Below, one piece after another: positions 14,701 to 57,198 of a stretch of 64,000 bases of DNA. The stretch covers positions 186,001-250,000 of the forward strand of contig JBBPFI010000002.1 of the NCBI GenBank assembly GCA_037974965.1, read 5' to 3'. A program made the position numbers and the translations under genes. Within the stretch, counting starts at the first letter, position 1. Each line of letters starts with the position of its first letter. This DNA is from Dacryopinax spathularia. Its lineage: Eukaryota; Basidiomycota; Dacrymycetes; Dacrymycetales; Dacrymycetaceae. The notes under the pieces are model-generated. The model saw only the letters and a list, made by a program, of their open reading frames with translations. It had not been told where the DNA came from and did not search any database.

Positions 14701-15479
14701 AACAGCTGGAAATGCGCTCGAAAGAGAGAGATCCCGCGTTTATAGACTCGTTGGAGGGGCTCGTCTTCCCCTCCCGGAGGCATGGGGGCTGGATAAGGCG
14801 GCGAAGCGGCCGTCCTCTGCGCCGGTGGGGAAGGCAGCGAGGACTGGGATGCAGAGAGGGGGATAAGGTCGATCGTCCATCTTTCCAAGACGATTGCTCT
14901 CGGGCTCGGGCTGAGCACCTGTGGGCCCCCGGAGGACTCGAAGTCCTCGGCGTCGCGTGAAGAATTGGTGGAGGAAGTGGAGCTTGACGGGCTTGGCGGT
15001 GGGGGGTGGAGGACGAGCAGCTGGGACGGTGCGAGAGGCGGGATAAGCAGGAGAGTGAGGATGGTGAGTTGTGCTGGTGGGGTCGGGGAGGCTGAGAGGG
15101 TGCGATAGGCTGCTAAGAGGGGTGCGAGGGACGGAGGGGGTGTGTCGGGTGTCTCGATGTTGAACTATCGCCAGATTCCGCGCTTATCAGCTTTTCCCAT
15201 TCTCGGAAATAGAGCAGGCAAAGAGCGAGAACGCACCCATTTATCAGGCTTCCGACCCCGCCCGCCTTCCCTATCCGACTCCTCCGCTCCTCCTGCTCCT
15301 CTATCTCCCGCTCCAGATGACGAGGAGGGTAGAGGCGGCGGCTGGACATGTGACTCCCTAGCCTGAGCGAGCAAGAGAGCAGCTTTGAGGTAAAAGCGGT
15401 GGACGATCTGGTCTGCTTTCTTGTTTGCGGACGTGGAGGAGCTGGCGGATGCGCCGCCCGAAGGAGCAGGGGCGGACAT
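11777..15479 (-). CDS. ATG13: Autophagy-related protein 13
   Basis: Three exons: 15479-15237, 15164-14504, 14442-11777; introns of 72 and 61 nt; 1189 residues. ATG13 is the regulatory subunit of the Atg1 kinase complex that starts autophagy; TORC1 phosphorylation controls it in yeast. The N-terminal HORMA domain (about residues 15-330) opens with DQIVHRFYLKAALLLAQAR and KPDKW, then FNIETPDTPPPS, AIVLERWTIDL, YKRGISLFRAHFQLLRQMP and GQLNIACTYL. HORMA ends near NKESLLSANFM. The long tail is Ser/Gly/Pro-rich and disordered and holds typical fungal Atg13 motifs: TRYSSSFSHRYSS, RRYSSSFGQRRP and DDPDLQNFLHMLDS. Poly-Gly and Gly-Thr repeats make it long for the family. The start ATG comes just before the conserved helix and has no rival upstream. 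Confidence 0.92.
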
Positions 15480-17692: not shown

Positions 17693-18630
17693 GCTGTTCA
17701 GTATCGTCCGACCTCTGCTTGTTGAGTCTTGACCGTCCTTCCGAGTGCATTTTTCGACCGCGCGTTCTCTCCGCTCGATACCCTAGGCGTTGTCTGTGTT
17801 GTCTTGGCTTGTGCTGTAGCACAACAGCAGGCCTTTCCCACGGTTTGAGCGACTCGGAATACAGTGAAGGCATTATGTCACCCCAGTGCGCTCCTCCCGT
17901 AACCCCTGTACGCTCTACTTGAGAACCATGTAAGCTCACAACTCACTTTTCTACGGCCCCTGGAGTATTGCGATTCCATCCCACGACGCTCAGTCGCACG
18001 CCACCATGTTGATCTGAAGAGAATCGTAGCGAATCGCGCTTCCTCTGTGTGTCCACATGCTTATATGCGGCTGCTCGTCGTTCCGCTACTGTCCGGTTCA
18101 ATGCACACCCCAGACAATGTCTGTTATGCCCAGGGCCGGTCCATGACATTGAGCGATCTCGTCACTGCCTTGCCATTCAGCTGCCATCTCCTGGCCCAGT
18201 ATCATCTCCAGTAAATACAGCAGTTCAACTTCGCCCTACAACCCAAATACTGTTGCTGACAATAGCGAAACGCTGCACGTTGTGTTCACTACCCTTTCGG
18301 CGTCGTTCCGCTAATCGTGCGTGAGATGCAATTGATGCCGCGCCGCTCTCGTTTGCTGACGTCATGCATGTTCATCATTATGACAGCGCTCTGAGTTGAT
18401 TACTCGAGGGAGATTTCGGGCTGCGTCACTAGAGCGTAGCGGAGTGTTCGGAGCCAGAAGTAGGAAAATACGTGTTGCTCCATCATCATGTCACAGCGCT
18501 TGATGATTATGTAATGGTGTGCGGTAGAAACACTTCTTCGCTGGCATCCGCCGGCGTCCTCCAACTCCCTTGACGCGCCCCAATCAACTGCTCGAGTCTA
18601 TCCATCCAACCCGTGTCGATCAGTCAGCAG
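17693..18630. other. Intergenic region, 0.94 kb
   Basis: No gene recognised. Upstream of the F-box-like gene at 18631. Confidence 0.45.
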
Positions 18631-19836
18631 ATGCCGGCTCGAGCAACGCTGTGCGCTGACGTACTATATAAATTGCTTGAATGTGTAGCTATGGACGCGT
18701 TCGAGGAGGCCTGCGATGCGCGAACACTGTACGGACGGGATGGACCTCGAGCGCCGGCGCATCCCCTTCTGTCTTGCTTGTTGGTTTGCAAGGAATGGAA
18801 GGTACATCATATCCCCTCCATCCAATCAGGTTTCATTTTGATATCGCGCCAGCCGATCGCAGAGAAGATGCTCTTCCGCTGGATATCGGTGCACACGACG
18901 AGCGCGTTGTTGTGGCTAGTCCGTCGACTGGAGCCATCATATATATCGCCGGCTAACTCGGTCGCGTCCTACATCCGTCACCTCGAATTTGACTGGGACA
19001 CCTGGAGGCGAATCAACGAAGAGGGCAGAGCGACCCTGTTCTCTCAAGCACGAAACCTCGTAACGTTGACCAATGTGACCTGCACAGTCCAAGAGATCGA
19101 CTCTCTCGCGGTTGCGAGCAGTGAGACTCTTCGATACTTGGAAGCTGCGCCGGAGGACGAGGAAAGTGACGAGAGCTTTCTGCAAGCTATTTCGAAACTG
19201 AAGGCACTGCGATGCCTGACCTTGCACATGTGGCGTGCCGTTCGGTCTAACGAGTCACATATCCGGCGCTTGGAGTTGCCCCTCCTGCACACGCTGACTA
19301 TCCGCGGCCTTCGCACCGACCGTTGTTTCCTCTCATCGTGGGACTTGCCGGCAATGGATGCGCTGAATCTGCACTCCCTGGACTTCGACCAAAACACCCT
19401 CGACTCAAATCACGAACTGGGACGGTTTCTACACTGCCACGGTCGATTCATATCGACCTTGGGGCTTCGCAATCTCTGGACACCCCTTCCAGCCCATGTC
19501 TTCCCTCAGTTGAAACATCTAACTCTTGACGCATCGCTGTTGCACTCGGAGCTACCGCTGGCAAACCTGCGTTCGCTGCCTGCATCGTGCGAACATTTGC
19601 ATCTTCCGATTATATCTTACTACGACTATTTCGACTTTGCCGAGCTTTTCTCCAGTACTTGGGCTAGGAAAAAAGACCTTCCGGTCAAATTCATTCACCT
19701 GGACAATCCGTGGTTTTCTTACACCATGGCCGAGGGAGATTCAGCCATGAGAGGATACTGGTCGAGGTTGGCAGTACAGCTACAGCAGGAGCGAGGCATC
19801 GTACTGTTGGATAAGGACGGCAGAAGTGGCCCTTGA
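18631..19836 (+). CDS. F-box-like LRR protein, tandem copy 1
   Basis: Model: exon 1 18631-18801, intron 18802-18852, exon 2 18853-19836; 384 residues. The N-terminus has an F-box-like pattern ending HPLLSCLLVCKEWK, followed after the splice by PIAEKMLFRW. The rest contains degenerate leucine-rich repeats (LKALRCLTLHM, LPLLHTLTIRGL, MDALNLHSLDF). Such proteins usually recruit substrates to SCF ubiquitin ligases; the substrate is unknown. The tandem copy at 20544 has the intron at the same residue and phase. The 51-nt intron is a multiple of three without a stop, so an unspliced message would also encode a full-length protein. An in-frame GTG at 18613 is ignored in favour of the first ATG. Confidence 0.75.
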   Translation: MPARATLCADVLYKLLECVAMDAFEEACDARTLYGRDGPRAPAHPLLSCLLVCKEWKVHHIPSIQSGFILISRQPIAEKMLFRWISVHTTSALLWLVRRLEPSYISPANSVASYIRHLEFDWDTWRRINEEGRATLFSQARNLVTLTNVTCTVQEIDSLAVASSETLRYLEAAPEDEESDESFLQAISKLKALRCLTLHMWRAVRSNESHIRRLELPLLHTLTIRGLRTDRCFLSSWDLPAMDALNLHSLDFDQNTLDSNHELGRFLHCHGRFISTLGLRNLWTPLPAHVFPQLKHLTLDASLLHSELPLANLRSLPASCEHLHLPIISYYDYFDFAELFSSTWARKKDLPVKFIHLDNPWFSYTMAEGDSAMRGYWSRLAVQLQQERGIVLLDKDGRSGP

Positions 19837-20543: not shown

Positions 20544-21763
20544 ATGTCAACGCAAAAGAGAGTTAACGCCGACGTCCTACCTCTAATATTCGAGGTTATT
20601 GAGACGGAAGAGGGCAACTTCCGGACGACTGGGATGCATCCCTTGTTGTCATGCATGTTGGTGTGCAAGGAGTGGAAGGTATGACGACTAGATATCTCCG
20701 TCAGGATCCCTCGAGTACAGCACACTGATGCAAACCTCTGTCGTAGCCCCTCGCCGAGAACATGCTATATCGTTCTCCGCGCTTGCGCCAATCCGCAAAT
20801 GTAGCTCAATTCGTTAGCCGCGTGCGATCCTGCGATGTTCCGGAGCGGTCGATTGCACACCATATTCGTCACTTATTCATCCGAGAGGATGCCTGGCAGA
20901 AGAGCGACTCGGAAGACAGATTACTCCTACTCTCGAAAGCAACAAACCTCGTAACTTTGACCAGCCTTACCTGTACGATAAAGGAGATCGACCTTATCGC
21001 CGCCGGCTGCCCTACGACTCTGCAAAGCCTGAACGCAACTATCGAGAAAGGGGAAGATGCTCGGCGATTCTTGGAAGGCGTTTCGAAGCTGAAAGCACTC
21101 CGATCACTGTCGTTGGGAATGGCGCAAGCCACCTGGTCTCCCGAGCCTGCCCCCGGTGCACACCAGCCGCTCGTAGAGCTCCCCTTACTTCACTCACTCA
21201 GTCTCGCATATGGCTTCCTGAGTTTCTCAGGCTTCTTCAGGGGCCCTTTCCTCGCACCATTCAACTTGCCGGCACTCAGGGCGCTCGATCTGTATACGGT
21301 GGTTCTGAACGAAGACTGCCTTGATGCGAATCACGAAATAGGCCGTCTTCTACATCGTCACGGGCCCTCCATGGTAAAGCTCGAGCTCAGCAATATCAAC
21401 ACACCGCTTCCTGAAGATTTCTCACCACATCTACAACAGCTCACTCTCTGGACTGATCAGTACGGTCTCTACAGTACAGTCCTGCGTTCCCTCCCGGGCA
21501 CCTGCAAAGATCTACATCTACCGAATGTCCGTGTGACCCTGCACGACTTTGATAGACTTGCCTGGCTGTTCTCGCACAACTGGACTACGGACCATGCGAA
21601 CCCGATCAAACACGTTCACCTTGGCGTTTCGTGGACGACAATGCTAGAGGACGAAGATTCATCTACGATAGGACGCTGCGCGAGGCTGGCTGTACGTCTA
21701 CAGCGCGATCAAGGGGTTTCCCTGCTGGACAGAAACGGGTTGAAATGGTCCTTGAGTACTTGA
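20544..21763 (+). CDS. F-box-like LRR protein, tandem copy 2
   Basis: Model: exon 1 20544-20678, intron 20679-20746 (GTATGA donor, TCGTAG acceptor), exon 2 20747-21763; 383 residues, one fewer than copy 1. Shared features: NADVLPLIFEVIE then HPLLSCMLVCKEWK|PLAENMLYR at the splice; ATNLVTLTSLTCTIKEIDL against ARNLVTLTNVTCTVQEIDS; EIGRLLHRHG against ELGRFLHCHG; and the C-terminal ARLAVRLQRDQGVSLLDRNG against SRLAVQLQQERGIVLLDKDG. The 5' exon lies outside the longest open frame and was found through the paralogue. Probable SCF adaptor; specific role unknown. Confidence 0.75.
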
Positions 21764-42651: not shown

Positions 42652-44578
42652 TCACAGCAATTCGAGGATCTTGCCAAAGTTCGGCGAGCCCCACCCAGTC
42701 ACCGGGTCCCAACCAGTAGTAGCGTTAAACCCATTCGTGAAGCATCCCGGGTTGTTCCCGATCGTGATATCGTTGAACGCATAGTGTCCTACCGCATCTG
42801 TCCAACATGTCAGCTGCCTTTCCCACGCGAGACTAGAGAGAGAGAGAGAGGAAGAGGAAGAGAGGAAGGCGACGTACAGAGCCAAGGATTCAGGAACCCA
42901 AGAGCGGGCTTTCCGTGCGTGATCAGGTAGTCATTCACCAACGAAATGATTCCCGTGAACGTCGGGCAGCTCGCGCTCGTCCCTGCTTCCAGCACCCACT
43001 CGCCCCCGACGTTAAGGGAGAAGTTGTTGCTCTGCGCGGCGACGTCCGGATAAGCGCGGCCGAACGGGTTGAACAGCCCTTTATACTCCTCGAGGTAGGA
43101 CGGGTGCCAGGCGAGGTAGCTGTCGACTGCTGCTGCTTGATAGCCGGGCTGGGAGAAATAGCGGCTGAACCCGCCACCGGAGAAGGGTACGGCCCATTCG
43201 GGGCCTTCGTGGTATGTCCCTCCCACCGCTGTCACGTACGGGCATGAAGCGGGGAAACCGGCCAGGAAGGTGGAGGTATTCTTCCCGTCGTTGGTGTAGC
43301 ACGTCGTAGGGCCGTAGGCTTGATCATTTGGCCCCAGACCGTCCCCGACACCGCCGTCACCAGAGGAGAACATCACACTCACTCCTCTCGCGCCGAGCTG
43401 GGCGAACTCGTTGCATACCCGCACGGCGTAGCTGTACGGCACCGTCTGCTCGTCGTCCCCATACGAAGTTGAAAGCTGGCGAGGCAGGTCCGCATCCGAT
43501 TTCGCCAGGATGTAAGCCAAGAACTCAGCATACGGCTCGTTCGTATCTGTCGGCGTGTTCAGATCGGGGTTGAACGGCGGGCTGCCTCCAGTCGAGTAGT
43601 AGATATTCGGGATCGGGTACGAAAGGCCGCCAGCATATTGAACGTCCAGATTGGCCTCGCCGCCAGCTTCGCTCTCGTTCTGCGAGTTCAGCCCGCCGTT
43701 GATCAGCTCGACGCTGAACATGTACCCTTGGGCGGCGGCCTCGGGCAGGTAGACTTGGTAGAACCAGTTGGTGTCGTTTATGTTCGCGTACTCTTCCAAG
43801 TAGCCAGCAATACCGAGTTTGTTCCCGCTCGTTGCGCTCGCCGTATAGTTCCCAACGTTATAGATCTCCTTAAGGCAGGCAGGGGTGATCGTGTGGTTGC
43901 AGCTTGCCGGGATGGGAGGGGCGGCGGCGGCTGGGACACTCGCGCTGATCGCTTGGCCGTGAAGGGTGTTCCGCTTGGGCTGCAGACGGGCGAAGGTCGT
44001 ACTGGGCTGGACGACGTCGACGTGCTCGTGCAGGTGGGAGGGAAGGGAGTACTGAAGCGTGCGGACGAGGTAGTCGCCTGAGGCGGCGTGGCGGAACACG
44101 TGGTACTCGGTGTCGAGCAGTTCTTCAGCGAGCGAGACGGGGAGGGTGATCGTCACCCAGTCATTGGCAGGAGAACGGGAGAGGGCACTGAGGGGTATTC
44201 CGTGTTCCTCGAGCCATTCATCGACGAGGGTGAGCGAGTCCTGGCGCATATATTCAGCGTGTTGCCTCGGGAAAGCAGTAAGACGGGAAGGCGCACCTCG
44301 CGTGGCCTGATGAACTCGTGGACATCCTCCTGGCTCAGGTGCATGCCATATCTCTCACTCCCAGGGGTGCTGACCTCCCACAACGCTTTCTCGAGCTCAT
44401 CGAACCTCGGCTGAGTGAGACCAATCTTCAGCTTGAGCTGGTGGGACGGTGGGGCGCGGGTGAGCTGCTCCCATCCCGGTGGAGGGGCAACGAGGGACTC
44501 CTTGAGAGCGTACCCCGTGCGAGGGAGGGGAGAGGCGAGCACAGTCGCTGCCAGCGAGAGGAAGGCGAGGAGCTGCAT
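42652..44578 (-). CDS. Sedolisin (S53 family) peptidase 2, tripeptidyl-peptidase-like
   Basis: Three exons: 44578-44297, 44240-42878, 42797-42652; introns 56 and 80 nt; 596 residues. Signal peptide MQLLAFLSLAATVLASPLP, a pro-domain (HQLKLKIGLTQPRFDELEKA, YGMHLSQEDVHEFIRP), then the catalytic domain. Catalytic features: GGEANLDVQYAGG (Glu and Asp), [12 protein letters not shown] (oxyanion Asp), EAGTSASCPTFTG (nucleophile Ser), and the Ca-site region TTGWDPVTGWGSPNFGKI at the C-terminus. It is a secreted acid peptidase cutting tripeptides from proteins. The second intron contains an AG dinucleotide repeat. It is a paralogue of the gene at 25271 but has far fewer introns. Confidence 0.93.
42835..42850 (+). 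repeat. AG dinucleotide repeat inside an intron
   Basis: Eight AG units followed by a purine-rich tract, within the second intron of sedolisin 2. Confidence 0.85.
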
Positions 44579-45699: not shown

Positions 45700-48270
45700 T
45701 CAGGCGACGAGCGGGGTGGTGACTGCTTGAAATTCGCCAGTCGCTGCTGCGGCGCCCTCGGTGATGGACTCCGACTGCGAGGAGAGGGTGACGGTCGTCT
45801 CGCTGGATGAGGCGCTACGGGTCAGGGTGGACGTGCTCGATGAGAAGGTGGCCTTCTCGCTGACCGATCCTCCCTGAGCTGCGCCGTGAGAAGTGACGGA
45901 GGCGTAGGTCGCGGAAGAGAAACCGCCCGATCCGCTCTTGACGTCGACGGTGATGCTGCCGCTCGGCGAGGAACTCATGCCCATGGAGGCGGCACCACCC
46001 TCAACGAAGGCAGTACTCTCCTTAGCAGGGCTGTTAGTCCTGCTGTTGACAGCGCTGCCGTAGCTCGGAAGACGCGGGAGAGGGGGCGTGTGGAGTCCGA
46101 TTCCGACTCCTCCACCGTTATGGAGATGGTGAAGGTAGAGGTACTTTGACTCCTCGGTGAGATCACTACGCATATCGTACATCCAGTCGACGTTCTCAGC
46201 CAGGTTGCCCTGAACGTGAACGAGGCGGTCGGAAAGATTCCGGGTGACGTTGCGCTCATGCGTGTGCGAAAGACTAAGCTCAGAAAGCCGACGCTCGAGC
46301 ACGGCCCTGACACCAGAGAGCGCGCGGAGCTCATCGTCCTTCTGCTCGTAGGACTTAGACAGCTGCGACAGCTCGGCACGGACAGCCTGGAGTGCCTGCT
46401 CGACGATGACGACGCGAGCCTCGACGGCGGTCTTCGAGTACTTGACCTCGACGAGCTCGGACTGCAGCTTCTCCTTCTCGGTCTGGGCGATCCTGAACGC
46501 TTTGGCGGTGTCCTGGTAGCTCTGCTCGAGGCGGGCCATGACAGCAGTGATCTCGGACAGCTCCTTGCGGAGCGTCTGGACCTGCTGCTCGTACAGGGCC
46601 TTCCATGCAGCAGAGTGTTTGATTACGACCTCGTGACCGGTGATCGTAGTCTCAGCCTTCTCGAGCCTGGTGCGAAGTGCGGTGCGCTCCGACTTGAGGT
46701 CGGAGTTCTGCAGCTTCAGTGCCAGCAGCTCGCGACGAAGCTCATCGGTCTCGGTCTCCAGCGTGGAGCACTTCCTCTGCATGAATGCCTTCTCCTCGGC
46801 AGTCTGTTTCAGGGCGGCCTCTTGCTTGCGGTACTCGGCGGACAGCCGCTTGAACTTCAAGCTCGTCTCGCTGAGGTCGTGCTTGAGGGTGGCGTATTCA
46901 GACACAACGCGCCTTGACTCCTCCTTCATGGACAGACGCTCCATGTCGACGGTGGAGAAACGCTCGTGCGCAGAGCTGAGCTCTCGGTACATGTCCGACT
47001 GGTCCTGGTACAGGAGGGCCATTTGCAGGTCGCGCTCCTTGATCTCGGTGTTGAGGTGGGCATAGTCGCCGTAGGTCCGCCCAATGTTGAGAAGACGAGC
47101 ACTGATGGTACGGTCCTGCTCAGCGAGCCTGGCCTCGGTGATGCGGAGCCTCTCTTCCAGCTGCAGGCGATCCTGGGCGGTGATGAGCTCCTTGGCTTCC
47201 TCCATCTCCGCCTTGCTACGTGCAAAACCGACTTCGAGGTCGGTCTTGTGCTTGAGCTCGAGCATATCGCGGATGTGCGCCTCACGTTCGCGTTGATCCT
47301 GAATGAGATCTTCGGAAATGTGAGCCTCCAGGCCGTGCACGGTGCTCTTCAGCTTTTCGATCTCGGACTGGGCACTTTCGAGCTGCAGGTTCATTTCAGC
47401 AACCTGGAGCTCATGGATCGCTTCGATCATGAGGTCGTCAGCCTCCTCGGCAGCGAGCTGTTCGCGCAGCTTCTCGACCTCGCTCTTGATACCACCGAGC
47501 TCCTTCTTGGCATTGATTAGCTCGAGAGCCTTGGTATCCAGGTCGCGCTGGTATTTAGCCCGGTCTTTGGCGTCCTTGAATTCGTCCGCCTTGATCGCAG
47601 ACTCCATGGAGGCGACCTGTTTCTTGAGCTCGGAGACGGTCTTGTTCTGGCTGGCAAGAGCATCCTTCTTCGTCGAGATCGAAGTCTTCGCCGCGGCGGC
47701 AGCCTTCCTCGATGACTTCGACCGCTTGGAGTTCGACGACTTGGACTCAGTGTGAACCTCCTCAGTGATGCTGACCTCTTTTGTCGACGTGGACTCGGTA
47801 TTGGAAGAAACCTCCTTCGAGGAGGCAGAATCCTTGGTGACGCTAGCGAAGAGCGTACCGTCCTCCAGAGTCTTCACGTCGCTAGACTCCTGGGCCGACT
47901 TCGTCATGGAAGCGCTGTGCGTCTCAACAAGGACGGTCTGTTTCTGGAACGAGATCATGTTATTGTCGAAGTCGATGATCTGCAGGAGATCGTAGGTGTC
48001 GTTGGTCCAGTCGTTCGTGCCCTCAGCGGAGCATGCCTTGTAGTGGATCTTCCAAGGGTCTTTGGCATCGAGGCGGATGTCGTTGGTCAACTTGCTGGAG
48101 AAGAAGCCGGTCTGCCCGTTGGTCGCCTTACGACCAGACACGCCGATCACATCGTCCAGCTTCTCGGTGAAGTGGACGATGGAGCCATCGGGATGGCGGA
48201 AGTCAACGTGGAAGACGCCATCCTTGTCAATCTTCTGACCGTAGAAGAGCTCTTTGGGTACAGGTGCCAT
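45700..48270 (-). CDS. CVNH-like domain / long coiled-coil protein, paralogue 1
   Basis: Single-exon gene, 856 residues. Residues 1-110 resemble, distantly, a cyanovirin-N homology domain: FTEKLDDVIGV, GFFSSKLTNDIRLD, WKIHYKACSAEGTNDW and YDLLQIIDFDNNMISF follow the CVNH pattern of two repeats with D-L...N-N-x-I/L. There is no signal peptide. A Ser/Thr/Glu-rich linker (about 115-200) leads into a long heptad-rich coiled coil (about 200-730), including LKYSKTAVEA-type repeats (VKYSKTAVEARVVIVEQAL). The conserved C-terminal block VQGNLAENVDWMYDM ... ESKYLYLHHL ... LPSYGSAVNS follows, then a Ser/Thr-rich tail absent from the paralogues. A TATAA box lies near 48401. CVNH domains in fungi bind mannose-type glycans; the role here is unknown. 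Other readings of the N-terminal domain are possible. Confidence 0.75.
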   Translation of the reverse strand: MAPVPKELFYGQKIDKDGVFHVDFRHPDGSIVHFTEKLDDVIGVSGRKATNGQTGFFSSKLTNDIRLDAKDPWKIHYKACSAEGTNDWTNDTYDLLQIIDFDNNMISFQKQTVLVETHSASMTKSAQESSDVKTLEDGTLFASVTKDSASSKEVSSNTESTSTKEVSITEEVHTESKSSNSKRSKSSRKAAAAAKTSISTKKDALASQNKTVSELKKQVASMESAIKADEFKDAKDRAKYQRDLDTKALELINAKKELGGIKSEVEKLREQLAAEEADDLMIEAIHELQVAEMNLQLESAQSEIEKLKSTVHGLEAHISEDLIQDQREREAHIRDMLELKHKTDLEVGFARSKAEMEEAKELITAQDRLQLEERLRITEARLAEQDRTISARLLNIGRTYGDYAHLNTEIKERDLQMALLYQDQSDMYRELSSAHERFSTVDMERLSMKEESRRVVSEYATLKHDLSETSLKFKRLSAEYRKQEAALKQTAEEKAFMQRKCSTLETETDELRRELLALKLQNSDLKSERTALRTRLEKAETTITGHEVVIKHSAAWKALYEQQVQTLRKELSEITAVMARLEQSYQDTAKAFRIAQTEKEKLQSELVEVKYSKTAVEARVVIVEQALQAVRAELSQLSKSYEQKDDELRALSGVRAVLERRLSELSLSHTHERNVTRNLSDRLVHVQGNLAENVDWMYDMRSDLTEESKYLYLHHLHNGGGVGIGLHTPPLPRLPSYGSAVNSRTNSPAKESTAFVEGGAASMGMSSSPSGSITVDVKSGSGGFSSATYASVTSHGAAQGGSVSEKATFSSSTSTLTRSASSSETTVTLSSQSESITEGAAAATGEFQAVTTPLVA

Positions 48271-50970
48271 TGCTGAAAGGTATGTGGGGTGAGGAGGGAA
48301 CAGGTGGTCAGGCGAGGAGCGGAGTGGGAGTGCGAGGAGCTGAGAGTTGGGGGATCCCTTAGGTTGTTGGGAGACGGTCCGACCTCGAACGGGTCTCGTC
48401 TTATACCCTGCGAAACCGTAAGGCCATGGTGAAATAGGCGAAACCCCAGCCTGTGCTGCGCTCGAAGAGCCGGCGAGCTAGCACTACCGATATAGCCATC
48501 GGCGCATCTGTCCTCTCGATCGCGCATTGGACCTCTAAACCAGCATGTTTTCAGCCCTCCGCTAGAAGCAAAGGAGACTAGAACTAGATCGCGTACCAGC
48601 CTTTCCTGCTCCACCAAGGCTGAAAGCGCGAACAGAAAGCCGAGCTTGCCCCTTCGGAACAATGTACCATCCGGAGTATTAATGTAGAGCCCAAAGCAGA
48701 TACAGTGGACAGCCAGCAGACGTGTGGTCCAGGACGTTGACAGTAGTGGGGCGACGGCATCAGAGGTACCGAGGCCGCCAGGATGCTTGTTTCTGGTCGT
48801 CTTCCGATGATGATAGGTTTAAGACGCGAGTAAGCAACGAGACATAGAATATAACCCAGGAACAGGACTCCTAAAGTGAGCGTAGGAGACCGGGACTTGC
48901 AAGCAGCGGAGACACACGTGATGCGGCATGCACTTGAGGCATGGGAATGCTTCCCCAGGCTTCAGTTCGCATTCCGCATAGCACGCATCGAACGAGCACA
49001 TTGACTACTGCCGGGTACCGCTTTACTGGGCTTTCGATTTGGGCTTCCGAGAGATGCATTGCTGCTCCGAGTCGGTTCGCAAGACGTAAATCTATCAACG
49101 GGGGAAGCCACTTTAAGCAACGGTCAGCAGGAGGGAGAGACGGCCTGACTGCGAGAGCAGGAGAAGCTCGAGCTTACACGAAGACATCAGAGCATCCTCT
49201 AACGATCCTGAGCACCGACTTCGCAGCCTGGCCCACCCGCAGCCCATCTGTGGCTCAGTACACAACACGGGGCCTGTCGAAGGACCGAAACGATTCGCTG
49301 TCAACATGCCGCGGTCGAACTCTATCCGAATCAGGCCTTGTCGTAGGGCAATGTATTGTGCTGGAGAAATCCGCGTCTCGTTCTGGGCAAGACCCCTGGC
49401 CAGCGCGCATTCGGCGTAATACAAATGGGTAGCAACCTCTGTTGATTGCGCTTCTGGCGCCGGCTGCCATCGCCGGCTGCCCTCCTAGCGCAAAGCTCGT
49501 ACGATGAATTTGATCCATACTGAGGATGGCTGAAGGGTGGCGGGCGGAGCACATCCCCATTCGCAGCTAGCGAATCTCGAATCATCTGCCGGGATATCCC
49601 AACACGTTGTCGGTGCGTTTTCAATGGGTTCCGGTTGCTCACAGCCCATGGCTCTGCAAGGAAATGGAAGTTGCGGCGCCTTGCTCAGTTGGAGCCAACC
49701 CACTACTTGTGTGATGGACGTAGAACTGGCGAGCAGGACGTAGAGATGATCACGAGGTCCAGCTGTCCCTGCCACTGGAGCGCGGATTTATGCATGCATG
49801 TCGTAGCAAGCAGCCATTTGCTGGAACATCTTATCTTGCCAAATAATCAATGAAATGAACGCGTTGAGAGCGATGTGCGCGTACGATTATGCCAGATCCC
49901 TCTTCTGCACCCCACTCTCAACCGCCATATCTCCAGCTCAGAAGGCTATCGGAACCCTACATGATCCGCCAAAGGCATCGCCATCGCCGGTGCCGCAATT
50001 GTTCGAAGTCGTGCAGATGTGCTCCTAGGTTCCCTCTTTCTGGGTGCAGCCTTTGGGGTTGTCCGGTCTGGCGAGAAAGGGTACGAAACTAGTGCGTGCG
50101 CTGTGCTATGCTGCAGGTTTGGAAGGAAGAAGGCTGAGGGTCTGCCAAGCATGTCAGTGTCACGGCGACCGTGAGAGAAGCACCACTGGCAGCACGGCGC
50201 TCCCAAGCACCCGACCATCTCCTTCACCAATACTGACCCACTTTATCTTTCTTGCCATGGAGCTGCTGTTTGCCGTTTTTGTCTGACCAGTTTCAACAGA
50301 CTGCTATATAAAAGCTTTCTCGCCGCAAGGATGCGTGCGATGCTGTCGACGCATGCTTCCGCGCCTCTTTTGTGTGCCAGAGCGTGCTGATACGTCGGTT
50401 CGCCGAGCTGACCGCATACACGACCTTCAGGCTCCTCCAAGGCAATCGAGCATGATGAAAGAGTCCGCAAGTTCAACCCCAGCCGATTTGGACGTCCATT
50501 TTGGACGTCCCGAGTTGTGGTTCTCTCACTCCACTAGTTCGACCTCGACCATGACTGACATGATGAGATGATAGACCTCATCTTGGGACCATTCGCTATC
50601 CCATTCTCCGGCTCTTCTATCTATGCCAGGCAGGAGATACCGTCATGGGATGGGCCATGCCTAGAGAGCCGCGCACGTCATCACACCATTTCTGCAAGTC
50701 CTCTCGGCGGTATCCCGCGCTCAGCCATGCCATAAAACGGTCTTAGACAGTAAAGGGAAGGCAATATATGCATTCGAGGAGACGACTATCTCTTCCAAGC
50801 AAGCAAGTTCAGTGAGGAACAACCGGAGCGCTTCCCACCTGTACAAGGCAAGGAAAGGGAAGGAGAGTGAGGAGAAGGAAATGTGACCAACAAATGAGAA
50901 AGCAGGGGTATCAGTCAGGTTACGGCTGAAGTTTCGCAGACGCAATCGAAAATGGGAGCGAATGGGCATT
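48271..50970. other. Intergenic region, 2.7 kb
   Basis: Lies between paralogue 1 (start 48270) and the stop of paralogue 2 (50971). It contains the promoter of paralogue 1 (TATAA on the minus strand at 48401-48406). No other gene could be supported. Confidence 0.45.
48401..48406 (-). promoter_or_regulatory. TATA box of CVNH/coiled-coil paralogue 1
   Basis: The minus strand reads GGGTATAAGACG, about 131 nt before the ATG at 48270. Confidence 0.4.
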
Positions 50971-52998
50971 TCACGCAGAGGCCACGGCAAGCGGCGCAGC
51001 GGGGGTTGCCTCTTCGACGACAGCGATCTTCACGTCGGCAGGCGCGACCTCAGGAGCAGCAGCGGAGTATTCGATAACCTCCTTGAGAGGAGCGACGGTC
51101 CCACGGGATGGGCTTCCAGCGGGGCTGTTCACGGCACTCCTGTAACTGGGGAGGCGGGAGAGCGAAGGCGACTGCAGACCGAGACCGATCTCTCCACCAT
51201 TCTGCAGGTAGTGGAGGTAGAGATACTTGGAGCCCTCACCGAGACCATCACGCATCTCGTACATCCAGTCGACATTCTCCACGAGGTTGCCCTGGACCTG
51301 GACGAGGCGCTCAGAAAGCTCCCGACTGACATCGCGTTCGTGCAGGTGGGTGTTGCTGAGGTCGGCCACCTGGCGCTCCAGAACAGCTCGGGCACTCGCG
51401 AGAGCACGGAGCTCATCGTCCTTCCGGTCGAAGGCGGTAGTCAGACGAGACAGCTCCGTCCTCGACGACTTCAATGCATCCTCAACAATGCGGACGCGAC
51501 CTTCCACAGCAGTCTTGGAGTACTTGACCTCAGCGATGTCGGACTGAATCTTGGCCTTCTCGCGCTCGGCGACCTCGAACGACTTGGTGGTGTCCTGGCA
51601 ACCCTGCTCGATGCGGGTCTTCACAAGCGCGAGCTCAGCAAGCTCCTTGCGGAGCGCTTGGATCTGCTGCTCGTAGATCACCTTCCACATCCCGAAGTGG
51701 CGGATGACCGACTCGTTCTTGGTAATCGTTTTCTGTGTATTCTCGAAGGCGAAGCGGATGTCAGTACGCTGTTTCTTCAGGTCCGTCGTGAGGACAGTGA
51801 GCCCAGCATTCTCCGTTCGAAGAGCTGCCAGCTCTAGCTCGAGAGCTGCCTGGCGACGCTCGAACCGTGCGGTCTCCTCCAGCTCGTGCTCCAGCTCAGC
51901 CTTCTGCTTGCTTGCCTCGAGGGTCACACGAGACAGCTTGGCGGTCGTCTTGTCGAAGCTCTCCATAAGCTCGGCATAATCGGCCCGAATGCGGTGGTGC
52001 TTCTCGCTCAGCGCAATGCGCTCGGAGTCGAGAGTCGAGTAGCGTTGGTGGGACAGGCTGAGGGTGCGATAGAGCTCGGCCTCCTCCCTCGCAAGAGCGA
52101 CCATCTTCTCGTCGCGCTCCCTCATCTCCCCGTTGAGCCACATACCACCACCCAACGCCTCGGCAACGGTCTGCTCACGAAGACGGATAGTATTGGCTTC
52201 CTGCGTCAACTTGATGTTGGTGAGCTTGATCTGTTCCTCGATCTCGCGCAGGTCCTGTTGAGTGTCTTCGGACTGCGCTTCCTTTTTTTCTGCCTGGACA
52301 TCGTGGCTTCCTCGCTTGTAGGCGGTCTCAGTCTTGACCGCCGCGAGTTCGGCTTCGAGCGTCGCCTCCTTCTGGTCGTTGAGCTTTTTCGCGGCCGCGG
52401 CAGCTTCCCTCAGCTTCCTCTCAACCTCAAGGTCGCGTTCGTGCTGGGCCTCAGCCGCGGCGGCCAGCTTCGCATCGTTGATCTTATCCTCGGCGACAGT
52501 TTTGGCTAGGTCTGCTTTCGTGTCCGCCGCAGATTCCTTAGCCTTCTTTTCGATCTCATCGGACTTCTTGGCGCTCTCAACTGCAGCAGCCTCGCGCTCA
52601 TTCTCCTTGGCGATTTGGGCAAACAATTTCTCGTTATCAGCGCGGTGCTTCTCCAGCTCGACGGGGTCCAGGGTGACTGGCTTGTAGTACTCCAGCTCTT
52701 TGCCGTTGAAACGAATGCGTTCACCGAGGTTGATATTGTGGAGCTTCCATTCCTTGTTGCCGTAGGTGGCAAGTTTGGTGACTAAAATGCCGCCTTTCAG
52801 TTCGTAGGGATCATGGCTCGCGGAATGGGTGATCTTCTCTCCTCCCCACTGAGGCTCCCCATTGTGATTGCCGAGGAACAGGTCGATATCGATTGACGGC
52901 GTCTTAGGGCTCTTCTTGTCGACCTGATGGAAGATCAGGTTGCGAGCGTGCGGCTCGTGATGCAGCGAGAGGGGGAGGTAGACGGCCTTCGGTGCCAT
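50971..52998 (-). CDS. CVNH-like domain / long coiled-coil protein, paralogue 2
   Basis: Single-exon gene, 675 residues, starting at the first ATG (52998; the frame is open further upstream without an ATG). Residues 8-105 fit CVNH well: IDIDLFLGNHNG (36-47), WGGEKITHSASHDPYELKGG, then WKLHNINLGERIRFNGKELE (84-103), i.e. two repeats with the D-L...G-N-x-N-G signature. Residues 110-600 are heptad-rich coiled coil with Ala/Glu/Lys-rich composition and the segment VKYSKTAVEGRVRIVEDAL. The C-terminal block reads VQGNLVENVDWMYEMRDGL ... SKYLYLHYLQNGG ... LPSYRSAVNSPAGSP. No signal peptide, so probably cytosolic. A TATAAAAG box lies about 90 nt upstream. Function unknown; a cytosolic lectin-scaffold role is only an inference. 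Confidence 0.8.
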   Translation of the reverse strand: MAPKAVYLPLSLHHEPHARNLIFHQVDKKSPKTPSIDIDLFLGNHNGEPQWGGEKITHSASHDPYELKGGILVTKLATYGNKEWKLHNINLGERIRFNGKELEYYKPVTLDPVELEKHRADNEKLFAQIAKENEREAAAVESAKKSDEIEKKAKESAADTKADLAKTVAEDKINDAKLAAAAEAQHERDLEVERKLREAAAAAKKLNDQKEATLEAELAAVKTETAYKRGSHDVQAEKKEAQSEDTQQDLREIEEQIKLTNIKLTQEANTIRLREQTVAEALGGGMWLNGEMRERDEKMVALAREEAELYRTLSLSHQRYSTLDSERIALSEKHHRIRADYAELMESFDKTTAKLSRVTLEASKQKAELEHELEETARFERRQAALELELAALRTENAGLTVLTTDLKKQRTDIRFAFENTQKTITKNESVIRHFGMWKVIYEQQIQALRKELAELALVKTRIEQGCQDTTKSFEVAEREKAKIQSDIAEVKYSKTAVEGRVRIVEDALKSSRTELSRLTTAFDRKDDELRALASARAVLERQVADLSNTHLHERDVSRELSERLVQVQGNLVENVDWMYEMRDGLGEGSKYLYLHYLQNGGEIGLGLQSPSLSRLPSYRSAVNSPAGSPSRGTVAPLKEVIEYSAAAPEVAPADVKIAVVEEATPAAPLAVASA

Positions 52999-53085
52999 GA
53001 GATAGCGGTGGATAACTACTGGTGTAGATGTTCGCGGTGATTTGGGCAAGGTAGAGTTGGTTGTGTGGTTCGTTTGTGAAGGTCG

Positions 53086-53093
53086 CTTTTATA
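53086..53093 (-). promoter_or_regulatory. TATA box of CVNH/coiled-coil paralogue 2
   Basis: The minus strand reads TATAAAAG 88-95 nt before the ATG at 52998. Confidence 0.5.
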
Positions 53094-54440
53094 ACTTCCT
53101 GACGCTGACGATAGGAGTAAGGCACGACCTGAAGCTGAGCCTCCCGCTTTCGTTGACAAGGACCCAATGCAGCAAAGCTCGGAGAGAGAGAAAGCGCCGT
53201 AATGGCGAGCGGTCAGTCATTCTCCGCAGAACGACAGGGTTGTGAGAAGAGCTTGTCGGTTTCACGGGAAGACGACCGCCGGATGCGTTGCCCACCAATC
53301 GCGGTTGTCAGAAGGCATCCGGTAAGCTTGGCGCCATATCGCACTGGAGCTTCATGTCAGTCAAATCAGGAGTGCAAGTCCGGGTTGACAGGCCCTAATC
53401 GGGCTGATGAGAGGCGCTGATGCAGGAACAAGGGAGAGGCTCCAACTCCGGAGAGCAATTGCACCCGCTCCGGTGGTGTGCGGTTGCACGCGAGCCAGGT
53501 ACCATCAGGCGTACGCTCAATCACTCTTTCGGCCGGTGCAACAGTTGATCTGCATGCAGCTCGGTGCCTGACGGTCAGACGACAAAGACGGCTGGTCAAT
53601 GGGGTCAGGGCCGCCTCCAATCCAACGCCACGTTTGGTGGTGAGGCGCAACTTCAGGGTTTGGAACCGGCCGGCGCTCATTGATGGTCTGCGGGCCGGTG
53701 TCGTCGCGTTCCAGCATTTCTCGTATTCGCGGTCTTCTTCGGCGGCGTGCGGTGGAGTCGAAACGTCGAAACGAATAGCAGGTATCAGAGTCGTCGTCCA
53801 AAAAGTGAGGGAGCTACCCCACAGAACGAAGCTTGATGCCGTGACACGTGGAAGACCAAGAAATGTTTGCCAGTTTGGTTCCGCCAAGGTGTGCGGGGTT
53901 CTGAGCGGACGATTCCTTCATTCAGCCCGTCCCCATTGTACATTCCAAGGCTCCGGTGTCTTGACCCTCCGGCCAAGTCCGCCTTCAATGGTTGCACCGC
54001 CAGATCAGTCACAATGAAGATAGGCTCGAGCACGATTGGGCGACATACCGATCAGCTCTTGCCTCAGGCACACGCTTCCGCCCCGGAGATGATCTCTTTT
54101 TGCCGGTGCCACTCCACAGTCAGCACTGCTCTCGTTGCTGTCAGTTAGCTCTTCCGCCCAAGATATTCTGCGTCCTGATGGCGTGTCCCGGTTCAACTGT
54201 CCCTGAATGATTCTGCAGCCCTCCTCAAAAGGAGGTCGTTCGAATGTTCGCCGGAACTGGACTCATTCCTCTGCGGTCGCTTTTCTGCACCGGCAGAAGC
54301 ATGAGCATACTCCCGATACCACCTGATGGTGAAGATGCAGGGACTCTCCCGCAGGTGTTGCGGACCTATGCGACCGCCGGTGCCTGAAACCCCTGTACGG
54401 AATTGGGTAGCGAGCCAGCATCAGTGGGAGTAATTAACCG

Positions 54441-54448
54441 TATAAAAG
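54441..54448 (+). promoter_or_regulatory. TATA box of CVNH/coiled-coil paralogue 3
   Basis: TATAAAAG 96-103 nt before the ATG at 54544, nearly the same spacing as in paralogue 2. Confidence 0.5.
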
Positions 54449-54543
54449 ACGATCGATCTGAGACGGCTGAACCGCACCGAGCAGCAACTCCCTCAGCATC
54501 TCAACTCCAATCTCCCCATCAACTCGAATTTTATCTAAGCGCC

Positions 54544-56571
54544 ATGTCACTCTCCCTTCACTTCGAGAACAATGGCAACGACAAACAACGCGTCTATCAC
54601 AAAGACGCGAAAACCGGCGCACGCACTCCCGCCTTCGACCTCAATGCTATTCTAGGCAACGACGACGGCAAGGCGAGGTGGGGCCTGAAAGGCATCAGCT
54701 TCCTCGCCAAAGATCTCTCCATCCACGACGGTCACATCTTGAAGGGTCTTCTGTACCAGAGGTCCCGCAAGTGGGAGCCGGTTAACGAGGACCTCGCCAA
54801 ACATATCCGCCTCGCGAACGGCAAGAACGAGCTCGAGTCTTTCGAAGTCCCCTTTGTTCCGAAGGACGAGATGGAGGCACTCGAGAAGAAAAACGAGGAG
54901 CTCCGCATCTTGCTTGCTCAGGCTGAACAGGCTGCCGCCGCCGAAGAGAAGGTCGCCGATAAGGAGAAGAAGGAGGCCGACGAGGCTCTGGAGCTCGAGC
55001 GACAGGCTAAACAAGAGAAGGCCGACTGGGAGAAGAAGAACAAAGCCGAGGATGATGCCCGTGCGGCGGATGTAGCAGCCCACCAGCAGTCTCACAAGGT
55101 GGCCCAGCAGGAGATCATTGCAAAGGCCGCGGAAGAGGAGCTCGCTAGCCAGGAGCGTCAAGCCGAACTCCAGTTCGAAAGCGCCGCGACTGTCGTCGAA
55201 GGCTTCATAGGTTCGCTCATGGCCGATGCGAAGGCAGCCGCTGAGGAGGAGGAAGAGCTCCGGTTCGCCGAGTCTCGATTGCAAAAGGAGCGGGAGCTTG
55301 CCCATCTGCAGAAGAAGCTCGCCAATCAAGCTCATGACATCAGCGGCCGCGAGTTCAACCTGAGCAAGATGTACGGAGATCATGCTTGGTACGACGCCGA
55401 GCTGAAGGAGCGCGACCTGAAAATGTCGTTCCTTTTCCAGGAGAGTTCGGAGCTCTACCGCGAGCTGAGCGAGTCGCATACCAAGTTCTCAGCTGTGGAC
55501 AAGGAGCGATTGGCGCGAATCAAGGAGGAAAGGCATATCAGTCGGATCATTGAGAGCGTGACTGAAGCCCGGAACGACCGTGCCGCCAAACTGGCTAAGG
55601 TCACGCGCGAGTGTCGCGATCGAGAGGCGCAAATCAAGGGCACGACGTTCAAGAAGACACGTGTTGCCGCCAAATGCAGCGAGCTCGAGCGGGAGATCGA
55701 CACCCTTCGTCGGGAGAACCTTGCACTGAAGACGCTGACCTCGGACCTCAAAGCCGAGCGCAGCGCTATCGAAGCCAAATTGACGCGTGCGAGGACCACT
55801 GTGGCCGGCCAGGAGCAAACCATCGAACACTCCAAGAAGTGGAAGCAGGTGTACGACGAGCAGGTCGCCGCTCTCAAGCAAGATATTGCTGAGGTCCAGA
55901 AGGCTATGGTCGTTCTGGAGGAGGGATACCGCGCTGTGACAGATGCGTTCCGAGCCGCCCAGTCTTCGAAGGAGAAGCTGCAGGCCGAATTAACGGCATT
56001 GAAGTACTCCAAGACTGCCGTCGACGCCGAGGTTCTCGCCGTCGAGCAAGCTATTCAAGAGACGCGTACGGAGATCTCGCAGCTCTCCAAGTCATTCGAA
56101 GAGCGCGACCGGGAAGTCCGGGCGATGGCGAGTGCAAAGGCCATCCTTGAGCGTCGCCTGTCCGAGCTCACTCTCTCGCACCTTCACGAGCGCAACGTCA
56201 CGCGGAGCGTCTCCCAGCGCCTCTTTCACGTTCAGGGCAACCTGGCCGAGAATGTCGACTGGACACACGATATGCGCAACGATCTTACGGAGGAATCCAA
56301 GTACCTATACCTGCATCATCACCGTCATGCGGGAATCGCGTTCGCAGAGGAGCGGCCTGGTCTCACGCGTCTACCAAGCTACGGGACGGCTATCAGCGGA
56401 CGAAATGGCGGCCCTGCTGAAAAGGTTGCTGCTGCTTCTGAGCAGCTCGCCGAAGCGATCGAGAAGGCGGAGGCCATCCCCATCGCTCTGAGCCCCGCCG
56501 CGGAAATCAAGGTAGCAGAGGACTTTCAGGCCCCTCAAGCTCAGCCCCTCGCCGCCGTCGCAGCGGCTTAG
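54544..56571 (+). CDS. CVNH-like domain / long coiled-coil protein, paralogue 3
   Basis: Single-exon gene, 675 residues, the same length as paralogue 2. The first ATG (54544) was chosen; it lies about 100 nt after a TATAAAAG box, and the open frame upstream has no ATG. Residues 2-104 give the clearest CVNH pattern of the three: SLHFENNG, FDLNAILGNDDGKARWG (31-47), ISFLAKDLSIHDGHILKGLL, WEPVNEDLAKHIRLANGKNE (77-96). A Glu/Lys/Ala-rich coiled coil follows (about 110-600), with LKYSKTAVDAEVLAVEQAI. The C-terminal block is VQGNLAENVDWTHDMRNDL ... ESKYLYLHHHRHAG ... RLPSYGTAISGRNGGP. No signal peptide or membrane helix. It stands head-to-head with paralogue 2. Function unknown. Confidence 0.82.
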   Translation: MSLSLHFENNGNDKQRVYHKDAKTGARTPAFDLNAILGNDDGKARWGLKGISFLAKDLSIHDGHILKGLLYQRSRKWEPVNEDLAKHIRLANGKNELESFEVPFVPKDEMEALEKKNEELRILLAQAEQAAAAEEKVADKEKKEADEALELERQAKQEKADWEKKNKAEDDARAADVAAHQQSHKVAQQEIIAKAAEEELASQERQAELQFESAATVVEGFIGSLMADAKAAAEEEEELRFAESRLQKERELAHLQKKLANQAHDISGREFNLSKMYGDHAWYDAELKERDLKMSFLFQESSELYRELSESHTKFSAVDKERLARIKEERHISRIIESVTEARNDRAAKLAKVTRECRDREAQIKGTTFKKTRVAAKCSELEREIDTLRRENLALKTLTSDLKAERSAIEAKLTRARTTVAGQEQTIEHSKKWKQVYDEQVAALKQDIAEVQKAMVVLEEGYRAVTDAFRAAQSSKEKLQAELTALKYSKTAVDAEVLAVEQAIQETRTEISQLSKSFEERDREVRAMASAKAILERRLSELTLSHLHERNVTRSVSQRLFHVQGNLAENVDWTHDMRNDLTEESKYLYLHHHRHAGIAFAEERPGLTRLPSYGTAISGRNGGPAEKVAAASEQLAEAIEKAEAIPIALSPAAEIKVAEDFQAPQAQPLAAVAAA

Positions 56572-57198
56572 GGTGCAATCCGATCCTTCCCCCCACGCCA
56601 GGACCAAGTCACGCCCTCTATTCCCTGCTTCTATCAAGTCGGCACCTTTCGCCAAACGGCGAAAACTCTTTCCCTCCGTTGATATGTGATACCCTTTCTC
56701 TGTCAGTTTTGGCTTGAGCTCTCTTCTAGTACGCTACGCTATCAGTTGCTTGATCTGTCCTGTTCAATGCGATCTCCATTGCCCCTCTTCCGAGATTACG
56801 CTATGAAGCAGCACCAGAACTGAATCCGATCCCCTGCTAGCCTTAATGATGTGTGATCTTTCCTCAAGCCGAGCCTGGGCGTTTGTTCTCCGAACGACAG
56901 GACGAGCTGGGTCGGAGATGCGCCCAGCGCTGACTCACTTTCGTAGTTGCTGCGATGTGACTCAGTGGACAAAGTTGAGCGACAGAGGTCCTGCCTCCGC
57001 AAAGTGAGTTGGGAAGGAAACGCCTTGGTGGCATCACGCGCCTATCTCGCAGGGATGGTGAACGATAGATAGGATCATGGACGACTACAGTACAGAGTTT
57101 TGCTCTAACAGAACAGGGACACGCAGCGCTAATCGTAACAGAGGTTGTCACGGCAGTGATAGAGAATTATATCATACATTGTCCGGAAACCTGGCGTC
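56572..57198. other. Intergenic region between converging genes
   Basis: 3' regions of CVNH/coiled-coil paralogue 3 and of the acyltransferase, which converge here. No gene seen. Confidence 0.55.

What the first reader, a model, noticed from the sequence alone, without database searches (positions are those of the whole stretch)
45700..56571. Cluster of three paralogues joining a CVNH-like lectin domain to a long coiled coil
Seen: three large genes whose first ~105 residues follow a two-repeat pattern (DLNAILGNDDG ... EDLAKHIRLANGKNELE in copy 3; IDIDLFLGNHNG ... INLGERIRFNGKELE in copy 2; a weaker version in copy 1), then about 500 residues of heptad-rich coiled coil and a shared end block. 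Known: cyanovirin-N homology domains occur in fungi as single domains or fused to LysM-type domains, and bind mannose-rich glycans. Inference: these are cytosolic, multimerising lectin-like scaffolds, an architecture I do not know as described. A tandem family inside one 11-kb stretch suggests active diversification, as in defence or self/non-self systems, though a structural role at septa or organelles is equally open.
Basis: partly seen in the sequence, partly recalled or inferred. Interest (0 to 1): 0.82.

Follow-up and report, generated by a model that had tools for sequence, protein, structure and literature searches.

The report
Jelly-fungus lectin heads on rods
A jelly fungus carries a small family of neighbouring genes whose proteins look like sugar-binding cyanovirin heads mounted on long coiled-coil rods; the combination appears undescribed, but what it does is untested.

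Summary
The observation largely holds. Three intron-less genes (c1 45700-48270 -, c2 50971-52998 -, c3 54544-56571 +) encode 856, 675 and 675 aa proteins; scaffold lengths identify Dacryopinax spathularia. The c2 and c3 heads are CVNH domains: the head profile hits 18 cyanovirin-type PDB sequences first, the c3 model's 22 best Foldseek matches are cyanovirins, Pfam scores straddle the cut-off. c1's head stays undecided. A rod follows, with heptads over about residues 232-600. The genome holds five members; c4 and c5 lie about 35 kb away. Relatives were found only in Dacrymycetes and two unnamed JGI proteins, by searches that miss some. c2/c4 share a nearly identical rod but divergent heads, and c3/c5 are 96% alike over most of their length: probable gene conversion. 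Asn42 with Ser for Thr57 survives in 4 of 7 heads; the other sugar site looks lost in 7 of 7. Best reading: a cytosolic, rod-multimerised lectin or glycan cross-linker, about as likely as a scaffold. Function is inferred. New architecture for a known domain.

The parts
45700..48270 (-). c1, type I gene, 856 aa, intron-less; N-terminal domain of unproven fold, Ser/Thr/Lys-rich linker, rod, end block, Ser-rich tail
   Evidence: relatives P0005, P0007, P0010
47896..48270 (-). c1 N-terminal domain (residues 1-125), 90 and 78% identical to P0005 and P0007, 50% to P0010 over residues 1-121; CVNH relation undecided
46111..47160 (-). c1 rod (about residues 371-720, limits approximate)
46006..46317 (-). 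c1 end block (about residues 652-755, overlaps the rod end)
50971..52998 (-). c2, type IIa gene, 675 aa, CVNH head plus rod
52669..52998 (-). c2 CVNH head (residues 1-110), Pfam 22.2 bits alone (cut-off 24.5), 20.1 in the whole protein; Asn42 kept, Thr57 is Ser
51193..52305 (-). c2 rod (about residues 232-602, by alignment to c3)
51007..52188 (-). stretch of c2 93% identical in DNA to c4, while the head parts of the two genes are far apart; probable conversion tract
52999..54543 (.). intergenic region between the divergently transcribed c2 and c3; 53623-53778 is 66% alike to a stretch of the c4/c5 intergenic region
54544..56571 (+). c3, type IIb gene, 675 aa, CVNH head plus rod
54544..54861 (+). 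c3 CVNH head (residues 1-106), Pfam 24.9 bits alone (cut-off 24.5), 21.8 in the whole protein; model of residues 1-113 at pLDDT 82
54862..55236 (+). c3 charged, proline-free stretch without clear heptads except at its start (about residues 107-231)
55237..56349 (+). c3 heptad rod (about residues 232-602)
56164..56463 (+). c3 end block (about residues 541-640, overlaps the rod end)
54540..56395 (+). stretch 96% identical in DNA to c5 (C2:275215-277070); probable conversion tract or recent copy

Best explanation
These are probably cytosolic rod proteins of jelly fungi (Dacrymycetes). Each has an N-terminal head (a CVNH domain in the type II copies c2 to c5), then a long coiled-coil rod and a conserved end block. 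Inferred mechanism: rods of the same or of related copies pair through the heptads and end block into oligomers that present several heads. Because each head appears to keep at most one cyanovirin-type mannose site, avidity would come from the rod, as in a multivalent lectin that cross-links mannose-rich glycans, either of an attacker when a hypha is damaged or eaten, or of an own glycoconjugate. Type I (c1), the copy best conserved towards Calocera, would be the common partner or scaffold. Supported by calls: domain kinship of type II heads, heptad rod, copy number, conservation, conversion-like mosaics. Inferred: oligomers, sugar binding, target, location.
Confidence: 0.35

Rival explanations
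1. Structural scaffold: the CVNH fold is reused as a protein-protein or end-capping module, and the proteins build a class-specific filament or tether, for example at septa or organelles; sugar binding plays no part.
For: 31 of 73 invariant columns lie in the end block; in type II the rod is as conserved as the head or more so in 21 of 21 pairs. The c1 domain is 90 and 78% identical to two relatives without being a recognisable lectin. Sugar-contact residues are partly lost. Named relatives found are all Dacrymycetes.
Against: No known septal or cytoskeletal family matches above its Pfam cut-off; the strongest, crescentin rod in c1, has 30.6 bits against a cut-off of 100. Asn42 is kept in 6 of 7 heads, which a pure scaffold would not need, although it may be structural.
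Confidence: 0.35
2. Recognition family: heads diversify while a common rod is kept alike by gene conversion, so that mixed oligomers sample different ligands, as in self/non-self or defence families.
For: c2/c4: dS 1.24-3.47 in the five bins of codons 1-275 against 0.08-0.40 in the six bins of codons 331-640. Intergenic regions of the two divergent pairs are alike only over 158 bases at 66%, although c3/c5 dS is 0-0.19 in the ten bins of codons 1-550.
Against: No positive selection shown; dS of the c2/c4 heads is saturated and exceeds dN in every bin. c3/c5 heads are 97% identical, so conversion or copying is not confined to the rod. No population data.
Confidence: 0.2
3. The two pairs are alleles or an assembly artefact: the strain is highly heterozygous (5.09%, PMC11066560, passages seen) and an uncollapsed haplotype was placed next to the other.
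For: c3/c5 differ by about 4%, close to the stated heterozygosity.
Against: Within window plus the next 30 kb, besides the genes themselves only a 158-base intergenic match and a 267-base inverted copy of the c3 3' end were seen between the two parts (beyond 44 kb of the window), and c2/c4 heads are saturated at synonymous sites. Three D. primogenitus members share one contig length.
Confidence: 0.06

Closest known systems
CVNH (Pfam PF08881), cyanovirin-N homologues such as TbCVNH, NcCVNH, GzCVNH, CrCVNH
   Same: Heads of c2 to c5: two-repeat pattern and sequence kinship; predicted fold of the c3 head
   Different: No cysteine in the heads of c2 to c5; only one of two sugar sites partly kept; joined to a ~500-residue proline-free, largely heptad stretch
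MoCVNH-LysM of Magnaporthe oryzae (type III CVNH with LysM inserted; PMC4392113, passages seen)
   Same: A fungal CVNH in a multidomain protein; appears in the fold list (rank 22)
   Different: Partner is a LysM inserted within the CVNH, not a coiled coil after it
SsCVNH of Sclerotinia sclerotiorum (PMC4632110, passages seen), whose authors find more than three CVNH architectures
   Same: CVNH domain
   Different: [quoted passage not shown] no rod mentioned in the passages
Animal collectins (recalled, from no call)
   Same: Works-like comparison only: lectin heads multimerised by a coiled-coil neck
   Different: Unrelated head fold, collagen part, secreted (all recalled)

Membership tests
CVNH domain (PF08881) | Profile score over the curated cut-off of 24.5 bits | tested here: inconclusive
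   Heads alone: c3 24.9 (over), c2 22.2 (under), c1 none. Whole proteins: P0008 25.8 (over); c2 20.1, c3 21.8, c4 17.5, c5 21.6, P0004 14.2, P0009 24.1 (under); c1, P0005, P0006, P0007, P0010, P0011 none (P0006 and P0011 lack the head region). Own-genome search: c3 stretch 24.7, other members not listed
CVNH domain (PF08881) | Sequence kinship of type II heads with solved cyanovirins | tested here: met
   19 of 27 PDB sequences at E up to 1 are cyanovirin-type, the first 18 without exception; profile of c2, c3, c4, P0004, P0008, P0009 heads
CVNH domain (PF08881) | Cyanovirin fold of the c3 head | tested here: met
   Foldseek ranks 1-22 and VIA rows 1-22 are cyanovirins; a prediction with moderate scores, not a solved structure; only the c3 head of the type II copies was modelled
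CVNH domain (PF08881), c1 head | Sequence or fold kinship | tested here: inconclusive
   No relevant PDB match; hhalign score 15.88 reached by 16 of 200 shuffles, rotations median 14.2 and maximum 15.88; model pLDDT 56 with cyanovirins among unrelated rows at like scores
Mannose-binding cyanovirin-type lectin | Sugar-contact side chains of domain B (Glu41, Asn42, Thr57) | tested here: inconclusive
   Asn42 kept in 6 of 7; Thr57 is Ser in 4 of 7 and Leu in 3 of 7; Glu41 is Gly in 7 of 7. Backbone carbonyls make most of the contacts (abstract passage of PMC8091458), which this does not test
Mannose-binding cyanovirin-type lectin | Glycan binding | not testable with these tools
   needs an assay
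Coiled coil | Heptad periodicity over a long stretch | tested here: met
   22 of 33 overlapping windows at shuffle fraction up to 0.05, 12 sequences averaged; single sequences weaker, 4 to 10 windows of 32 to 43 in 8 proteins
Coiled coil | Oligomerisation in solution | not testable with these tools
   needs purified protein

The most novel reading that the evidence does not exclude
A class-specific modular recognition system: one conserved rod and end block, kept compatible between copies by gene conversion, carries interchangeable CVNH-fold heads of differing specificity, so that mixed oligomers form combinatorial multivalent lectins inside jelly-fungus cells.
Probability: 0.15. Interest if true: 0.75.

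Novelty: new variant of a known kind. Interest (0 to 1): 0.5.

Why it matters
A survey of fungal lectins states that the function of cyanovirin-type proteins in fungi is not elucidated (PMC8227253, passages seen). A CVNH head on a long rod would be a natural multivalent cyanovirin, something made in the laboratory as tandem dimers (3s3y and 3s3z). The family so far marks one fungal class, and its apparent gene conversion separates head from rod in c2/c4, so head and rod functions can be tested apart.

Tried and rejected
Judged unlikely: haplotype artefact as the origin of the second pair (see rivals). Rejected: filing by the Pfam coiled-coil matches (crescentin rod, FlaC, Shugoshin, BRE1 and others): all are under their cut-offs. 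Not filed: c1 head as CVNH. One search gave P 0.029 with three sequences, but with a fourth it was 0.052, 16 of 200 column shuffles reached that score, and 100 rotations had median 14.2 and maximum 15.88, equal to the observed score; reversed profiles scored 10.2 and 10.6. The three-sequence score (17.17) was not shuffled.

Led nowhere or limited: the search with full-length c3 (7999 candidates scored, capped) found only P0004, although P0008 and P0009 are 45 and 41% identical to c3. So the search misses real relatives, and confinement to Dacrymycetes, resting on (3052 candidates; 7994 scored, capped), is provisional. Paper searches, open-licence library only: CVNH with coiled coil, 0 papers; cyanovirin-N homology, 20 listed of 3345; cyanovirin-N lectins, 20 of 115; Dacrymycetes genomes, 25 of 60; CVNH domain, 15 of 905; cytoplasmic lectins, 5 of 5; septal pore, 15 of 22; cyanovirin-N contacts, 10 of 18; cyanovirin with Dacryopinax or Calocera, 10 of 25, none listed with cyanovirin; CVNH architectures, 10 of 130. 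None of the listed titles or abstract starts describes a CVNH on a coiled coil. Passages were seen in PMC11066560, PMC8227253, PMC11857070, PMC8091458, PMC9725752, PMC4392113 and PMC4632110; the rest are listings. In PMC8227253 the words coiled, Dacry and Calocera do not occur in the main text. The alignment-averaged periodicity test was made after the single-sequence one had proved weak; the fragment P0011 was left out of it. The dS values come from a script of my own (counting method with a simple correction). Absence of other folds from the VIA lists shows nothing.

Full report
What is there. Three long uninterrupted frames lie at the stated places. Taking the Met that aligns with the starts of relatives, c1 is 45700-48270 (-, 856 aa), c2 50971-52998 (-, 675 aa) and c3 54544-56571 (+, 675 aa). 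c1 is 40% and 37% identical to c2 and c3.

Where it is from. The window is C2:186001-250000 of a 29,246,034-base genome in 24 contigs. Contigs C2 and C4 are 3,126,553 and 2,217,289 bases long, exactly scaffold_2 and scaffold_4 of Dacryopinax spathularia in PMC11066560 (passages seen), which reports 24 scaffolds; its printed total, 29,247,333, is slightly larger. The identification rests on these lengths.

More copies. A search of the same genome with c3 finds five members, all on C2. c4 (C2:271810-273837, -) and c5 (C2:275219-277351, +) form a divergent pair like c2 and c3, about 35 kb further on. The DNA between the pairs holds other frames without resemblance to the family (judged by eye, most not scanned).

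Relatives. One search found one relative, P0004 of Dacryopinax primogenitus. A search with the c1 end region found six proteins among 3052 candidates: P0004 and P0009 (D. primogenitus), P0006 (Calocera cornea), P0007 and P0008 (Calocera viscosa), P0005 (unnamed, JGI). A profile search found eight among 7994 scored candidates, adding P0010 (D. primogenitus) and P0011 (unnamed, JGI). P0004, P0009 and P0010 share the longest-contig length 961,128, and P0007 and P0008 share 383,192, which suggests clusters there too. No relative outside Dacrymycetes was found, but one search shows that the tool misses real ones.

Types. In a tree of the rod stretch c3 260-430 (12 sequences) the CVNH-headed proteins (c2 to c5, P0004, P0008, P0009) form one group with support 100; within it c2 and c4 go with P0009 (99) and c3 and c5 with P0004 (93). 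Trees of the two shorter stretches support this poorly or partly (45 to 94 for the same two groups, with other branches mostly under 50), and in the head tree (7 sequences) P0009 falls with c3, c5 and P0004 (71), not with c2 and c4. I call c1 with P0005, P0007, P0010 (and, by its rod and with weak support, P0006) type I, and the rest type II. Type I rods of c1, P0005, P0006 and P0007 are 78 to 86% identical to each other, P0010 only 51 to 53% to them.

The head of c1 is undecided. It is 90, 78 and 50% identical to those of P0005, P0007 and P0010. It has no Pfam match and no relevant PDB match. The profile comparison with type II heads scored 15.88; 16 of 200 column shuffles reached that, rotations reached 15.88 at most with median 14.2, and reversed profiles scored 10.2 and 10.6. 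The model is poor (pLDDT 56). Cyanovirins occur among its best fold rows, but mixed with unrelated proteins at like scores, and none of 658 Foldseek matches has E up to 0.001.

Sugar site. On the alignment to cyanovirin-N, Asn42 is kept in 6 of 7 type II heads (Val in P0004), Thr57 is Ser in c2, c4, P0008, P0009 and Leu in c3, c5, P0004, Glu41 is Gly in all 7, and the domain A residue Asn93 (role recalled) is replaced in all 7. PMC8091458 (passages seen) reports that N42A abolishes binding, E41A or E41G reduces it and T57A leaves low-millimolar binding; it also says that several contacts go to the protein backbone, which residue identity does not test. So c2-type heads could keep one weak site and c3-type heads probably not; this is inference.

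Rod. The longest proline-free stretch is 493 to 516 residues in the seven type II proteins and 656 in c1, where it includes part of the head and the linker. Averaged over 12 sequences, 3.5-residue periodicity is significant in 22 of 33 overlapping windows: 21 of the 24 that start at residue 232 or later, 1 of 9 before. Hydropathy shows no membrane stretch and no signal-like start in 8 of 8 proteins (simple averages, no dedicated predictor). Of 73 invariant columns in the 11-sequence alignment, 31 fall in c3 residues 541-640.

Mosaic evolution. c3 and c5 are 96.05% identical over 1848 bases; c2 and c4 are 92.98% identical over 1182 bases that cover only the C-terminal part. Synonymous divergence of c2/c4 is 1.24 to 3.47 in the five bins of codons 1-275, 0.65 in 276-330, 0.08 to 0.40 in the six bins of 331-640 and 0.76 after that. 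For c3/c5 it is 0 to 0.19 in the ten bins of codons 1-550, 0.54 in 551-605 and 1.4 to 1.8 beyond. The intergenic regions of the two pairs are alike only over 158 bases at 66%. An old duplication of the pair followed by gene conversion explains this; partial recent duplication is possible, and no formal conversion test was run. The last part of c5 is unlike c3, while a 77% copy of the c3 3' end and downstream DNA lies inverted at C2:265294-265550, which suggests that a rearrangement cut off the original end of c5.

How it works. See the best explanation and its rivals: a rod-multimerised lectin and a scaffold are about equally likely on present evidence. A defence role in the cytoplasm follows the known case of nematotoxic mushroom lectins such as CGL2 (PMC2798750, start of the abstract seen in the listing), not any datum here.

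Verdict. A real, apparently undescribed architecture of a known domain, in a family found so far in one fungal class. Interest 0.5: solid anatomy, open function.

Noticed in passing
L010 5295-5551 (C2:265294-265550), against window 56525-56789: Inverted 77% copy of the c3 3' end and downstream DNA, apart from the five genes of the family; c5 has a different 3' end. Suggests an inversion or other rearrangement that cut the end off c5.
   Followed up: partly
P0010 (D. primogenitus, 1196 aa): The type I relative carries a long array of short Ala/Gln/Ser-rich repeats between head and rod; the linker of type I varies greatly in length between species.
   Followed up: no
G000:C4:2100131-2100424 (L001): A separate CVNH gene with cysteines and without a rod in the frame seen, Pfam 54 bits, in the same genome.
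   Followed up: partly
window 18574-19836, 20747-21763; L009 6326-7324; L010 6026-7078: Several frames that look by eye like F-box/leucine-rich proteins around the cluster; the two in the window gave no Pfam match at 0.001, the other two were not scanned.
   Followed up: partly
window 42810-44354: Frame with a pro-kumamolisin activation domain, Pfam 73 bits, probably a sedolisin-type protease.
   Followed up: no
window 46150-46917, 50887-51837, 54652-55488: Long open frames antisense to the family genes, in my judgement an effect of codon use in the helical stretches rather than genes.
   Followed up: no
window 14202-15164: ATG13 (autophagy) match, Pfam 59 bits.
   Followed up: no
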